Position numbers and translations under genes: made by a program | The notes under the pieces: model-generated | The model's input: the letters and a program-made list of their open reading frames with translations, nothing else | Database searches by the model: none | What the model was told of the DNA's origin: nothing | In this document: piece after piece, positions 2,972 through 6,300 of the stretch | How positions within the stretch are numbered: position 1 is the stretch's first letter | Layout: the number at the start of each line of letters is the position of its first letter | DNA from: Mariannaea sp. PMI_226 | Taxonomy: Eukaryota > Ascomycota > Sordariomycetes > Hypocreales > Nectriaceae | Direction of reading: 5' to 3' | Assembly (NCBI GenBank): GCA_024336345.1 | Contig: JANFOG010000007.1 | Location: 2,480,001-2,544,000, forward strand | DNA length: 64,000 bases

Positions 2972-4945
2972 TTAATCAGACCCCCTCCTTTTGTGGGATC
3001 TCCATTTCCGAAAACCAACCTTTAAACCTATAATCTCTCCTAAAGATCTACGGTGTGGCTTCCGCTCTTCTGAATCGCGGACCTGCTTAATCGCCAAGAT
3101 TGAAAATGGTCTTATAAGAGACCGCGTTTGTTGTAACGACTCCTGTGTGGAGGCGAGGTATATAACGCTCTGAGTCGTATCTGGGTGATCATCTCCAAGA
3201 ACATGCCGGCAAAGATCTAGGGCAGTCTTATGAAGCACTTCAGCTTCGTCATATCGGCCCTGCTCATAGTACATTGTCGCAAGAGACGCAATGCTGCTAA
3301 TTGTATCGGGGTGCTTCTCCCCAAGCGCCTCCCGCCAGAGTCCCCACGCCCTTTCATCTACCGGCTCTTTCTCTCTCCATCGACCTTGATCGTAGAGAAA
3401 ACTCGATACTCGCCTGAGCAATCTTGATGTTTTGATATCATTCCCGTTCACTTCTGCCCAATCTCCCACTCGTATAGCATGCGCTATATACTGCTCGCAT
3501 CGTGTCCATGGCTTTCCTTCCCATACCGGGAAAAGCTCGTCTACTATTCGTAAAGCTATATTGGAATAGTATGCTTCACCAAGTTCCAGTCCGCTCTCCC
3601 TCCCAGCTTTCTCACCAAGGGCTGTATTGATTCGTCCCCTTACCCATAGCCCATATCGTACAGCTTCTTGCACAAGCTTATACATCTCGTAGCTCCGCTC
3701 GCCGTCCTCTTTCCGACGCAAGCTGAGAAAAGAAAACTCATTCAATCGCATAATTGCTTGCTGTACCTCAAGGTCCGTAGCCTGCCCGGCTGAGTCTTTA
3801 TCGCTAACGCGACTAGCAGCTGCCGCCATTAACTCATGCGGTATGTCTTGGCCGTCCACATACGCAACCACATGGAGGATGCGGTATGACATTTTGCTCT
3901 CCGCTCGAATCCGCTCTATCGAGCTTCTCCATGTTTCAAGCACACTATTAGACACCTCCGGCCGTCGATGCTGGTCAAAATCGCTTATCTTTAACACATC
4001 CCACCGAGTATTGCCTTGTCTAAGGAGCGACAAGTATTCCTCGATCGTCATCGACATGCGCCGAATGTACGCACCAGCTTGTGAGATTGCTAGCGGAAGG
4101 CATTGTAGTTCGTCCAGAAGAGCATCAACTCCTACCTCCTTAAAAGTCGATTCTTCGTCTCTGACTCGTGCAAGAAGAGATGTTGCCTCATCTGCGGTCA
4201 TGGATCGCACCTCGATACCTCGACGCGATCCGACAAGCGTGCCAGCAATATGCGCATCACGGCTCGTCCATAGGATCGTCCCTTGTGAAGCACGAGGGAT
4301 ATACTTGCGGAGAGTTTCGTTTTCCCTACCCCCAGTTCGGCCTACTCCAAACAGGCCCAAATCATCAGCATTATCGAAGATAATAACCCATTGCGGCTGG
4401 GCTTCAATATTGCTGCGCACAGCATCGAGCAAATCTGAGCCATCAAGCCTTTCGTCGACCCCAAGCTTCTTCGCAATTGTCTTATAATCGGATATAAAAG
4501 TCGCTTCGTTGTCTGCGTGCACCCAGAAGACACAGCATTCGCTATCATTGTCGCATCTTCGGTACGCGTAGTCCAGTGCAATCTGCGTTTTTCTTGGATC
4601 GTCAGTGAGCGACAGAGCCAAGGTGAAAGTGGAGACATACCCTGAGCCTCCCAAACCCCATAGGGCAGCACTATAAAATCCTGATGTTTGGGGTAAAAGC
4701 TTGTCTAGTCTCTCGATGGGGTCTGGACGATGGATCATATCCTCATTGCGGGGATATGGAATGATGCGGACGACTTCAGAACGGGCCGGCTGGTGGGGCA
4801 AGTGATAGTGAACGTTGCCCTGAATATTGCCCTGGTTGATGATGGTATTGTTATCAAATTGACTGTGACTAACATTGCGCTGTTGGTATCTGCGAGTCGC
4901 CGCCATCTTGATGACGGTGTAGAATTCGCGTGGGAATTGAGTCAT
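2972..4945 (-). CDS. NB-ARC/TPR (NLR-type) STAND protein with N-terminal amyloid-like motif
   Basis: Signal-transducing P-loop ATPase of the fungal NLR class; such proteins sense a ligand through repeats, oligomerise on ATP binding and activate an effector, often in allorecognition or cell death. The frame is open from 4945 to 2972, but 4640-4593 is a 48-nt GT-AG intron that interrupts the P-loop. Splicing gives exons 4945-4641 and 4592-2972, 641 residues, and restores GLGGSGKTQIALDYAYR (P-loop about 97-104). Walker B reads WVIIFDNADD, sensor ILWTSRD, and the GLPL-like motif LPLAISQAGAYIR. A Kinesin-light-chain type TPR unit covers about 515-584 (EKHPDT, YYEQGRYDEAE, DDHPDT). The last 57 residues are basic and not TPR-like, so the repeat array looks much shorter than in typical family members. 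There is no N-terminal effector domain, only a 50-residue leader with an Asn/Gln/Gly motif matching the neighbouring PNP_UDP protein. It is divergent from that gene. Confidence 0.88.
   Translation of the reverse strand: MTQFPREFYTVIKMAATRRYQQRNVSHSQFDNNTIINQGNIQGNVHYHLPHQPARSEVVRIIPYPRNEDMIHRPDPIERLDKLLPQTSGFYSAALWGLGGSGYVSTFTLALSLTDDPRKTQIALDYAYRRCDNDSECCVFWVHADNEATFISDYKTIAKKLGVDERLDGSDLLDAVRSNIEAQPQWVIIFDNADDLGLFGVGRTGGRENETLRKYIPRASQGTILWTSRDAHIAGTLVGSRRGIEVRSMTADEATSLLARVRDEESTFKEVGVDALLDELQCLPLAISQAGAYIRRMSMTIEEYLSLLRQGNTRWDVLKISDFDQHRRPEVSNSVLETWRSSIERIRAESKMSYRILHVVAYVDGQDIPHELMAAAASRVSDKDSAGQATDLEVQQAIMRLNEFSFLSLRRKEDGERSYEMYKLVQEAVRYGLWVRGRINTALGEKAGRESGLELGEAYYSNIALRIVDELFPVWEGKPWTRCEQYIAHAIRVGDWAEVNGNDIKTSRLLRRVSSFLYDQGRWREKEPVDERAWGLWREALGEKHPDTISSIASLATMYYEQGRYDEAEVLHKTALDLCRHVLGDDHPDTTQSVIYLASTQESLQQTRSLIRPFSILAIKQVRDSEERKPHRRSLGEIIGLKVGFRKWRSHKRRGSD
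4805..4879 (-). other. Amyloid-like motif in NLR N-terminus (residues 23-47)
   Basis: This stretch encodes NVSHSQ followed by FDNNTIINQGNIQGN and VHY. The N/Q/G-rich alternation with branched hydrophobics is of the kind seen in fungal amyloid signalling motifs placed at the N-terminus of NLRs. It aligns without gaps to the last 25 residues of the divergent PNP_UDP gene (6223-6297), with 10 identities and 4 conservative changes. The similarity is seen directly; amyloid behaviour is inference. Confidence 0.65.
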
Positions 4946-5104
4946 ATGGTCTACTCAAGACGATGTGGCTTAAGCTGAGGTGCATAGAAATACGAGATAT
5001 CAACACAGCCTCTTCAGCCGCTCACGTGATAACGAAGCAACGCAACACTCTTGGCTTTATTCACTTCAGATTCGTGTTCTTCTAGCATCTACAACATACA
5101 CATA
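4946..5104. promoter_or_regulatory. Bidirectional promoter between NLR and PNP_UDP genes
   Basis: Only 159 bp separate the two divergent start codons, so both promoters and leaders must lie here or overlap. It contains a CACGTG-like core (tcacgtgata, about 5022). Such a short shared region would tend to co-regulate the two genes. No clear TATA box was identified. Confidence 0.5.
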
Positions 5105-6300
5105 ATGACGTCCTCATAGCTGCTAACTGACTGCAAACATTTCCATGTCGCCATCATTTGTGCTTTGTCCCGCGAGGCTGACGCCATCACTTTGCGTTTC
5201 GACCAGTTTTAGGATGAGGTCTACGATCCTTACGGCCGAGCTAATGGCGACATAAATACCTATGACATTGGTCGCATTGGAGATCATAATGTTGTTCTGG
5301 CTATCCTCCCGAGCATGGGTACCAATAGTGCAGTGGCTGCAACTGCTAGCTTGCGATTAAGCTATACTAGCCTCCGGCTCGCCCTTCTTGTTGGAATCTG
5401 TGGAGGAGTGCCCCATATTACCAATATGGATGCATTTCTGGGCGATGTGGTTATAAGCAAGACCATTATCCAATATAACTATAGCAGGCAATACCCTAGA
5501 CACTTTATTATAAAGAACACCGTTGAGGACAGTCTAAGGAGGGATATCTGGGTTCTTCTTACAGTCTTTAAAATGGAACTTATGAGGGAGTGGCTGCAGA
5601 ATGAAGCTTTAGAGCACTTGCAGCATATGCAAGCAGCAGATAGAAAGAAGTGGCAGAGAGCTAATTACCAATATCCCGGAATGATTAATAACAAATTATA
5701 TCCTCTAAACTATGTTCACAAACACCAAACTCCGTCTGACTTGGGTATTGGCAATCTGGGCGCCTTTTATGAGTCTGCTTCTAAGGCATATTGTAGCAAT
5801 ACTCAATGTGGTTCGACCGATCTAGTTGCGAGAGAACGTTTTATTGAAGATGATAGGTTCAGCCCCGAGATCTTCATCGGTCGAATAGGGTCAGGCAATA
5901 CGATTATGAAGAGCAGGGAAGATCGTGATCGAATTGCTGCTGCATCTAACATCATTGGGTTCAAAATGGAAGGCGCTAGAGCGTGGGATGAAGTTCCGTA
6001 TATTGTTATCAAGGGCATATGCAATTATGCAAATAGCCACAAGAACAAAGCGTGGCAAGATTTTGCAGCAGCCACGGCGGTATCCGTGATGAAAGCCATC
6101 CTAGGGCGATATGTAACTCATGGCAGAGATCAAAGCTTAGCCCAAACTAACGGTATGCCCATTGCCCCTTTTTGTTCTTCTTCACTTATATATATATAGG
6201 CCCAGAACAAGAAATGAGCAAATGGAATGTTTCATCGAATTCTTTTGGGAACCTCGCTTGGATCAACCAGGGGGATGTGAGACGAAATCTGACATTTTGA
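5105..6300 (+). pseudogene. PNP_UDP (nucleoside phosphorylase superfamily) protein with C-terminal motif; two in-frame stops
   Basis: Phosphorylase-superfamily domain of the type usually fused to the N-terminus of fungal NLRs. From the ATG at 5105 the frame reads MTSS, a TAG at 5117, then HVAIICALSREADAI, a TAG at 5210, then DEVYDPYGR and on through LLVGICGGVP, IGFKMEGARAWDEVP and NYANSHKNKAWQDFAAATA. An intact frame alone starts at 5315. In family members the last two motifs normally read FEMEGA and DYADSHK; here Glu is Lys and both Asp are Asn, so ribose and base binding may be lost. Exon 1 ends at 6152; the intron 6153-6199 (47 nt) leads to exon 2, 6200-6300. Only the spliced form ends in the motif shared with the NLR; unspliced it ends after a different short tail. 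The full frame would be 382 residues. An LTR remnant begins 9 nt after the stop. Family assignment is firm; whether any protein is made is doubtful. Confidence 0.82.
6223..6297 (+). other. Amyloid-like motif at the PNP_UDP C-terminus
   Basis: The last 25 codons of the spliced frame encode WNVSSNS, then FGNLAWINQGDVRRN and LTF. They match the NLR N-terminal motif position for position (shared N-V-S, F, N, I-N-Q-G, N; conservative D/N, V/I, L/V, F/Y). The placement, C-terminal on the effector and N-terminal on the receptor, is the one known for HET-S/NWD2-type pairs. Confidence 0.65.

What the first reader, a model, noticed from the sequence alone, without database searches (positions are those of the whole stretch)
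4805..6297. Divergent NLR and PNP_UDP genes share a 25-residue motif: candidate amyloid-signalling receptor/effector pair
Seen: NLR residues 23-47 (core FDNNTIINQGNIQGN) align without gaps to the last 25 residues of the spliced PNP_UDP protein (core FGNLAWINQGDVRRN): 10 identities and 4 conservative changes. The start codons are 159 bp apart. Known: in fungi, NLRs can activate a separate effector encoded next door through a short amyloid motif, N-terminal on the NLR and C-terminal on the effector (HET-S/NWD2 and PP-motif systems). PNP_UDP domains are normally fused in cis to fungal NLRs. Inference: here the PNP_UDP domain works in trans through a shared motif, an effector type I do not know to be described for this mechanism.
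Basis: partly seen in the sequence, partly recalled or inferred. Interest (0 to 1): 0.9.

Follow-up and report, generated by a model that had tools for sequence, protein, structure and literature searches.

The report
Fungal immune receptor–enzyme pair, enzyme broken
Two neighbouring fungal genes, an immune-type receptor and an enzyme thought to kill the cell, share a short matching tag of the sort that lets one switch on the other by prion-like assembly; such pairs have been described before, and here the enzyme gene is broken while the receptor looks intact.

Summary
The shared motif is real: 25 ungapped residues, 10 identities, 0 of 20,000 shuffles as good. It recurs at the C-terminus of PNP_UDP proteins (52 of the 120 listed hits) and the N-terminus of NLRs (93 of 120), with adjacent genes in several genomes. 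A trans receptor/effector pair using an amyloid-type motif is thus well supported as a design. It is not a new effector type: Wojciechowski et al. 2022 (PMC9815663) describe PNP_UDP effectors paired with NLRs through PUASM (fibres and prion behaviour shown), NLR12 and PF01048_015. The window motif is not PUASM; it most likely is NLR12, but the logos are not held, so identity is unproven. The host, Mariannaea sp. PMI_226, has a second, also damaged, PNP/NLR locus. Verdict: a new member of a known kind, effector apparently dead in this strain.

The parts
2972..4906 (-). NLR gene (receptor side): N-terminal motif, NB-ARC-type P-loop NTPase, 2-3 TPR repeats; 628 aa after removal of intron 4593-4640; looks intact
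   Evidence: Pfam TPR_10/TPR_12 over cut-off, NB-ARC and AAA_22 below cut-off; deposited protein P0122 matches the window at 100% over 1-628; 8 of 246 conserved columns departed from, rank 68 of 120
4593..4640 (-). 48-nt intron in the NLR, inside the P-loop codons (GLGGSG|KTQ)
   Evidence: comparison of the window frame with P0122, DNA printed
4805..4882 (-). receptor-side motif QRNVSHSQFDNNTIINQGNIQGNVHY
   Evidence: 42.9 bits to the A1 motif profile, which contains this sequence; alignment to the effector tail
4907..5104 (.). 198-bp divergent intergenic region between NLR start (4906) and PNP ATG (5105)
   Evidence: the block 4454-6155 aligns as one piece to the second locus L039 at 72%
5105..6152 (+). 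PNP_UDP effector gene, first coding exon; interrupted by two in-frame TAG codons; active-site region decayed
   Evidence: (PNP_UDP_1 over cut-off)
5117..5119 (+). in-frame TAG no. 1
5210..5212 (+). in-frame TAG no. 2, at a column where 114 of 116 relatives share one residue
6153..6199 (+). 47-nt GT-AG intron before the motif exon
   Evidence: spliced tail equals the deposited P0001
6200..6300 (+). second coding exon: linker, motif, stop (6298-6300)
6223..6297 (+). effector-side motif WNVSSNSFGNLAWINQGDVRRNLTF, the last 25 residues
   Evidence: 41.9 bits to the A1 profile, which does not contain this sequence

Best explanation
The window holds one locus of a known kind of fungal system. An NB-ARC/TPR NLR carries a short amyloid-type motif at its N-terminus; the divergently transcribed neighbour encodes a separate nucleosidase-fold (PNP_UDP) effector with the same motif on a flexible C-terminal tail. 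In intact relatives the likely course is: ligand binding oligomerises the NLR, its clustered motifs template the motif on the effector tail, and the clustered nucleosidase depletes a purine nucleotide, probably ATP, giving regulated cell death. Shown here by sequence and prediction: motif homology on both sides, its terminal positions, a tail predicted disordered and a predicted nucleosidase fold in a relative, gene adjacency in several genomes, and decay of the effector copy in this genome. Inferred: amyloid templating, ATP as substrate, cell death. In this strain the effector is a recent pseudogene or null allele, so the receptor is orphaned unless another partner exists.
For: Motif: 23 effector tails and 11 NLR N-termini align over 27 profile positions, with one one-residue gap in one row and F10, Q18 and G19 invariant; 52 of 120 PNP hits (47 within 5 residues of the C-terminus) and 93 of 120 NLR hits (81 starting at residues 7-9), the window's own two included. 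Adjacency: consecutive locus tags in 5 of the 12 tag prefixes that I saw in both lists (ACHAPT, FSARC, ACHAPA, QQS21, NW768, counted by eye); the divergent block is also present at a second locus of the same genome. Tail: residues 361-400 of relative P0002 have block pLDDT 30-39. Enzyme: best PDB matches of that model are MTA/SAH nucleosidases, E 2.3e-12, TM-score 0.41 by query and 0.68 by target, the first family Asp of the CDYAD stretch aligning with the Asp of their SD motif. Decay: two TAG, 30 of 162 conserved columns changed (rank 1 of 120), Asn at residues 307 and 310 where 111 and 118 of 119 relatives have Asp. Recent loss: dN/dS about 0.21 against PNP-2 at dS about 1.1, and no stop after codon 70; random changes leave none there in 115, 40 and 2 of 500 runs at 50, 100 and 200 changes. 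Mechanism in print: PUASM and NLR12 in PMC9815663; PNP_UDP as immune ATP nucleosidase in bacteria (PMC10197012, passage) and as a module with ATP hydrolase activity (PMC12881547, passage).
Against: No amyloid test exists here for this motif, and Pfam's amyloid-motif families do not match it (HMMER filters drop most matches above E about 0.1). In the 5 consecutive-tag pairs the NLR has the motif in 5 of 5, but the PNP models lack the tail in 5 of 5, apparently because they stop at or read into the unspliced intron, so both motifs are seen together in only 3 of the 9 pairs that I listed (P0001/P0122, P0047/P0218, P0058/P0196, called same-contig from equal contig lengths). 68 of 120 PNP hits lack the motif in their models. 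Asn at residue 307 also occurs in 5 of 119 relatives, so that change alone does not prove loss of activity. Lineage co-variation between the two sides rests on two genera, and some Fusarium NLRs also have the short form.
Confidence: 0.8

Rival explanations
1. The truncated PNP product (from internal Met 71) is still made and used as a catalytically dead, motif-bearing partner, analogous to the inactive HET-s variant of HET-S (recalled): it would take up or block the amyloid signal instead of killing.
For: The frame after codon 70 stays open for 312 codons including the motif; splice sites and motif are kept; Asn sits at the Asp that aligns with the SD motif of MTA/SAH nucleosidases, for which Asp-to-Asn mutant structures exist (1z5o, 4oy3; titles; that it is the same residue is recalled, not aligned).
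Against: Many other conserved residues are also lost, 30 of 162 columns; 50 neutral changes leave no stop after codon 70 in 115 of 500 runs, so an open frame is no proof; the product would lack the N-terminal part of the fold.
Confidence: 0.06
2. The shared motif is an ordinary structured docking tag (heterotypic binding, no amyloid templating) that brings the enzyme to the oligomerised NLR.
For: No assembly data for this motif; no match to the HET-s, HET-S, sigma or PP models; of four HET-s-type repeats from the same genome scored against the motif profile, one got no score, two scored -0.2 and -0.7 bits (204 and 409 of 1000 shuffles as good) and one 4.3 bits (16 of 1000).
Against: Same termini, same single-copy layout and same gene pairing as motifs shown to be amyloid, including PUASM on the same effector fold (PMC9815663); the two partners carry the same sequence, as homotypic templating needs and a docking pair would not.
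Confidence: 0.12
3. The motif is a general linker of PNP_UDP-NLR fusions left behind by gene fission, with no signalling role.
For: PNP_UDP domains are often fused to NLRs, and this genome has several loci of that arrangement.
Against: The motif profile scores at most 7.5 bits in the 5 such loci that I fetched (L042-L046), against 41.9 and 42.9 bits in the window; it sits at the extreme termini of both proteins.
Confidence: 0.03

Closest known systems
NLR12, a PNP_UDP-associated HRAM (HRAM3-like) motif, Wojciechowski et al. 2022, PMC9815663
   Same: Single motif at the C-terminus of PNP_UDP_1 effectors; NLR-side motif near residues 5-9; Sordariomycetes; more NLRs than effectors in some genomes.
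   Different: The logo is in a figure that is not held, so sequence identity is untested; NLR12 pairs were co-localised in only a few cases, while here 5 of 12 shared tag prefixes show adjacent genes; Pfam HET-s models do not match this motif.
PUASM, Wojciechowski et al. 2022, PMC9815663
   Same: PNP_UDP effector C-terminus paired in trans with the N-terminus of an NLR encoded next door.
   Different: Its pattern FxGxGxQxxGxGxF occurs in none of the 240 relatives; PUASM NLRs are NACHT or NACHT-WD40, with the motif mostly at positions 20-49.
PF01048_015 (PMC9815663), probably the 'PUASM 2' of PMC12261475
   Same: A second PNP_UDP-associated motif with paired NLRs.
   Different: Only four pairs reported; its sequence is not in the text that I saw, so identity cannot be tested; that it equals PUASM 2 is my inference.
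HET-S/NWD2 (HRAM1)
   Same: Receptor N-terminus to effector C-terminus, neighbouring genes, a conserved G after a short strand. A HET-s-type pair lies elsewhere in this genome (C19).
   Different: HeLo pore-forming effector with two repeats (PMC4518210); four HET-s-type repeats of this genome score at most 4.3 bits against this motif profile.

Membership tests
NLR/effector pairs signalling by an amyloid motif (general kind) | Motif at the NLR N-terminus and the same motif at the effector C-terminus | tested here: met
NLR/effector pairs signalling by an amyloid motif (general kind) | Genes adjacent | tested here: met
   Window; second locus L039; 5 of 12 shared tag prefixes consecutive (by eye)
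NLR/effector pairs signalling by an amyloid motif (general kind) | Motif lies in a flexible tail outside the effector domain | tested here: met
   AlphaFold2 of relative P0002, residues 361-400 at block pLDDT 30-39; not done on the window's own protein
NLR/effector pairs signalling by an amyloid motif (general kind) | Motifs form fibres, cross-seed, propagate as prions | not testable with these tools
   needs bench work
NLR/effector pairs signalling by an amyloid motif (general kind) | A working effector in this genome | tested here: not met
   Two in-frame TAG and active-site changes in the window copy; the PNP-2 frame has a TGA and a broken tail; no third motif tail found (one single-sequence query, which can miss diverged copies)
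PUASM | FxGxGxQxxGxGxF pattern | tested here: not met
   0 of 52 motif-bearing PNP tails, 0 of 93 NLR N-termini, 0 of all 240 proteins
PUASM | PNP_UDP effector in trans beside an NLR | tested here: met
HRAM (Pfam HET-s PF11558, HET-S PF17108) | Profile match | tested here: not met
   No match at E up to 10 for the two proteins or the two short pieces (filters drop most matches above about 0.1)
HRAM (Pfam HET-s PF11558, HET-S PF17108) | Hydrophobic at 5, 8, 10, 16, 18 and G at 19 (text of PMC4518210) | tested here: inconclusive
   With the conserved G set to 19 by me, columns 5, 10, 16 and 19 fit, 8 (mostly N or S) and 18 (Q) do not; four HET-s-type repeats of this genome against the profile: none scored, -0.2, -0.7 and 4.3 bits
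NLR12 / HRAM3-like of PMC9815663 | Single C-terminal copy on PNP_UDP_1 effectors; NLR motif near positions 5-9; Sordariomycetes | tested here: met
   47 of 52 within 5 residues of the end; 81 of 93 starting at residues 7-9; genera of named carriers (Fusarium, Trichoderma, Dactylonectria, Ilyonectria, Thelonectria, Colletotrichum and others) are Sordariomycetes by recall, not looked up one by one
NLR12 / HRAM3-like of PMC9815663 | Same sequence logo | not testable with these tools
   Logo only in Fig 3a; no supplementary look-ups allowed
PF01048_015 | Same sequence logo | not testable with these tools
   Logo in S1 Text, not held

The most novel reading that the evidence does not exclude
The window carries a natural HET-s-like variant of an enzymatic effector: a PNP_UDP protein that has lost its active site and N-terminus but keeps the amyloid-type motif, and so acts as a non-killing template or decoy for its intact NLR. 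It would show that the active/inactive prion-partner split known for HET-S/HET-s also arises for nucleosidase effectors.
Probability: 0.06. Interest if true: 0.75.

Novelty: new member of a known kind. Interest (0 to 1): 0.3.

Why it matters
It gives a well-aligned sequence set for a PNP_UDP-associated motif that, if it is NLR12, has no experimental test listed in PMC9815663 (Table 1). It also shows gene-level turnover: an effector lost while its receptor stays intact, and a sister locus in which the divergent NLR is eroded. That bears on how fungal receptors and effectors uncouple. It does not add a new effector type or mechanism.

Tried and rejected
PUASM identity: rejected by pattern. HRAM identity by profile: Pfam models give no match; a PDB search with the motif profile gives two cytochrome P450 hits at E 1.1 and 1.2 and no HET-s; of four HET-s-type repeats from this genome one got no score and three scored -0.7, -0.2 and 4.3 bits against the profile (409, 204 and 16 of 1000 shuffles as good). 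In the same call three family members left out of the profile scored 27.0 to 35.4 bits with 0 of 1000 shuffles as good, and two relatives with other motifs gave weak signals: the P0118 tail 5.8 bits (12 of 1000) and the P0230 N-terminus 5.6 bits (2 of 1000). RIP as the cause of decay: considered because 24 of the 31 changes listed are of C-to-T or G-to-A type by my reading of the codons, but TA/AT is 0.72 and (CA+TG)/(AC+GT) is 1.65 in the PNP gene, not RIP-like by the usual thresholds (recalled), and C>T plus G>A is 174 against 110 reverse in the comparison with PNP-2; not claimed. A 5' intron that hides the stops: rejected. A search for the motif in other effector types with P0019 residues 349-388 had only 3 candidates and returned P0019 alone, so it says nothing. 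A shuffle test timed out and was redone; a scoring script failed and was redone. Papers: PMC9815663 seen as passages, outline and sections 19, 24, 45; PMC4518210 passages, outline with abstract, and section 7; PMC5485727, PMC12261475, PMC12258605, PMC12881547, PMC10197012 and PMC8086366 passages only; others in search listings. That PNP_UDP trans pairs are in print comes; I do not claim that this exact motif is unpublished.
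Full report
What is there. The window is part of a 42.2-Mb fungal assembly (G000, contig C23) that the protein search identifies as Mariannaea sp. PMI_226 (P0001 and P0122). On the minus strand, 4906 to 2972, lies an NLR of 628 residues after one 48-nt intron (4593-4640): motif, NB-ARC-type NTPase, 2-3 TPR repeats. On the plus strand, 5105 to 6300, lies a PNP_UDP gene with a 47-nt intron (6153-6199) before a short last exon.

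The observation. Among the 120 listed relatives on each side, the window's own included, the motif is found in 52 PNP proteins and 93 NLRs at 15 bits or more. In 47 of the 52 it lies within 5 residues of the C-terminus, and in 81 of the 93 it starts at residues 7-9. These counts come from a profile built from 34 sequences of the same set, so they describe the family and are not an independent test. Of the 27 NLR hits without the motif many are models that lack the N-terminus, and many PNP models stop at or run into the unspliced intron, so both figures are probably lower bounds.

The pair as a unit. Consecutive locus tags link a PNP hit to an NLR hit in 5 of the 12 tag prefixes that I found in both lists (by eye). 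All five NLRs carry the motif; none of the five PNP models includes the tail. Inside this genome the block 4454-6155 matches a second divergent locus, L039 (C23, about 1.13 Mb away), at 72%. There the NLR is a remnant that keeps a piece of the motif (DNTAIHQGD), and PNP-2 has a TGA in frame and a broken tail. Another NLR remnant with the motif lies on C9 (L041, 30 bits). In the five fetched loci with a PNP directly upstream of an NLR on the same strand (L042-L046) no frame scores above 7.5 bits. A whole-genome query with one effector-side motif sequence found only the window's two copies; it did not even return the L041 copy, so it can miss diverged ones.

The effector copy is broken. The PNP frame contains TAG at 5117-5119 and 5210-5212. 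The second falls on a column where 114 of 116 relatives share one residue. The relatives printed for this stretch run colinearly through it without an intron. At columns at least 85% conserved the window protein departs in 30 of 162, the highest of 120 proteins (median of the others 4.8%, next highest 26 of 168); the NLR departs in 8 of 246, rank 68 of 120. Residues 307 and 310, in the KGICDYADSHKN stretch, read Asn where 111 and 118 of 119 relatives have Asp; Asn at 307 occurs in 5 of 119, at 310 in none. The first of these aligns with the Asp of the SD motif of MTA/SAH nucleosidases in the PDB; Asp-to-Asn mutants of that enzyme are deposited (1z5o, 4oy3; titles), at the same residue by recall. 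Over the longer term the gene was constrained: dN/dS against PNP-2 is about 0.21 at dS about 1.1, and codons 71-349 have no stop. Loss is therefore likely recent. Standard dinucleotide indices do not show RIP.

How it most likely works where intact. The effector family has a predicted nucleosidase fold (model of P0002, mean pLDDT 73.9) and a tail predicted disordered (block pLDDT 30-39 over 361-400). Fungal PNP_UDP domains are described as relatives of immune ATP nucleosidases (PMC10197012; PMC12881547; passages). With the motif on both partners at the termini used by HET-S/NWD2 and PUASM systems, the best reading is receptor oligomerisation, templated assembly of the effector tail, and nucleotide depletion. 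The assembly and the chemistry are inferred.

What is known. PMC9815663 reports PNP_UDP effectors paired in trans with NLRs by PUASM (pattern FxGxGxQxxGxGxF; fibres and ThT for both peptides of one pair, prion behaviour for the effector-side one), by NLR12, and by PF01048_015. The discussion singles out NLR12 as a PNP_UDP-associated HRAM variant with more NLR-side than effector-side copies in some genomes. The window family shares these traits, for example six listed NLRs under the single Fusarium oxysporum tag prefix AU210. PUASM is excluded by pattern. I put NLR12 at about 0.7 and PF01048_015 at about 0.15; neither logo could be seen.

Results against the reading. No amyloid evidence exists for this motif in anything I saw. 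Both motifs are seen together in only 3 of the 9 pairs that I listed. A two-genus comparison (9 Fusarium and 16 Trichoderma PNP tails, 52 and 18 NLRs) gives higher same-genus scores (46.6 and 43.8 against 39.4 and 38.0), but it has two lineages only and hand-picked members. The 120-hit lists are the top of 613 and 655 hits, so taxonomic breadth is not sampled evenly.

Motif exchange. Close PNP relatives in Metarhizium, Beauveria and Pochonia end in another repeat-like tail, for which Pfam gives a weak Ses_B match in the one tested (P0118, 12.4 bits against a cut-off of 23.2). An NLR of the same family in Madurella fahalii (P0240) has weak HET-S and HET-s matches at its N-terminus (13.8 bits against 24.3, 11.9 against 32.2). 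All are below cut-off, so this is a lead only.

Noticed in passing
G000 C19:4084255-4085406 (L053, L057): A HET-s-type pair: an open frame with HET-s_218-289 (103 bits) at its C-terminus and, about 900 bp away on the other strand, an NLR-like frame with a weak single HET-s repeat (18.7 bits, below cut-off); domains of the two frames were not scanned.
   Followed up: partly
L039 3774-5100: PNP-2 seems to have a vestige of the motif tail (DQRRSNAYSIRGNS) followed by an NB-ARC-type stretch resembling the end of Fusarium pseudograminearum P0042: a possible trans-to-cis change (by eye).
   Followed up: partly
P0106, P0111, P0116, P0118 (C-termini): Relatives of the effector in Pochonia, Beauveria, Metarhizium and an unnamed source carry a different C-terminal tail (NSGFQAG core); weak Ses_B match in P0118, suggesting exchange of motifs on one effector backbone.
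   Followed up: partly
56647-57831 and 58227-59054: Iron-containing alcohol dehydrogenase (maleylacetate-reductase-like by recall) next to an intradiol dioxygenase: looks like an aromatic-ring catabolic gene pair.
   Followed up: partly
7600-12000: Decayed non-LTR-type retroelement (zinc-knuckle-like stretch by eye, reverse transcriptase frame 10851-11699) with many stops.
   Followed up: no
31856-33163: DDE_1 transposase frame, 435 aa, open.
   Followed up: no
P0202 N-terminus: NLR of the same family (Triangularia verruculosa) whose N-terminal FG...QG spacing is longer than in the window motif; could be an intermediate between this motif and HRAM spacing (by eye; -0.3 bits to the profile).
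   Followed up: no
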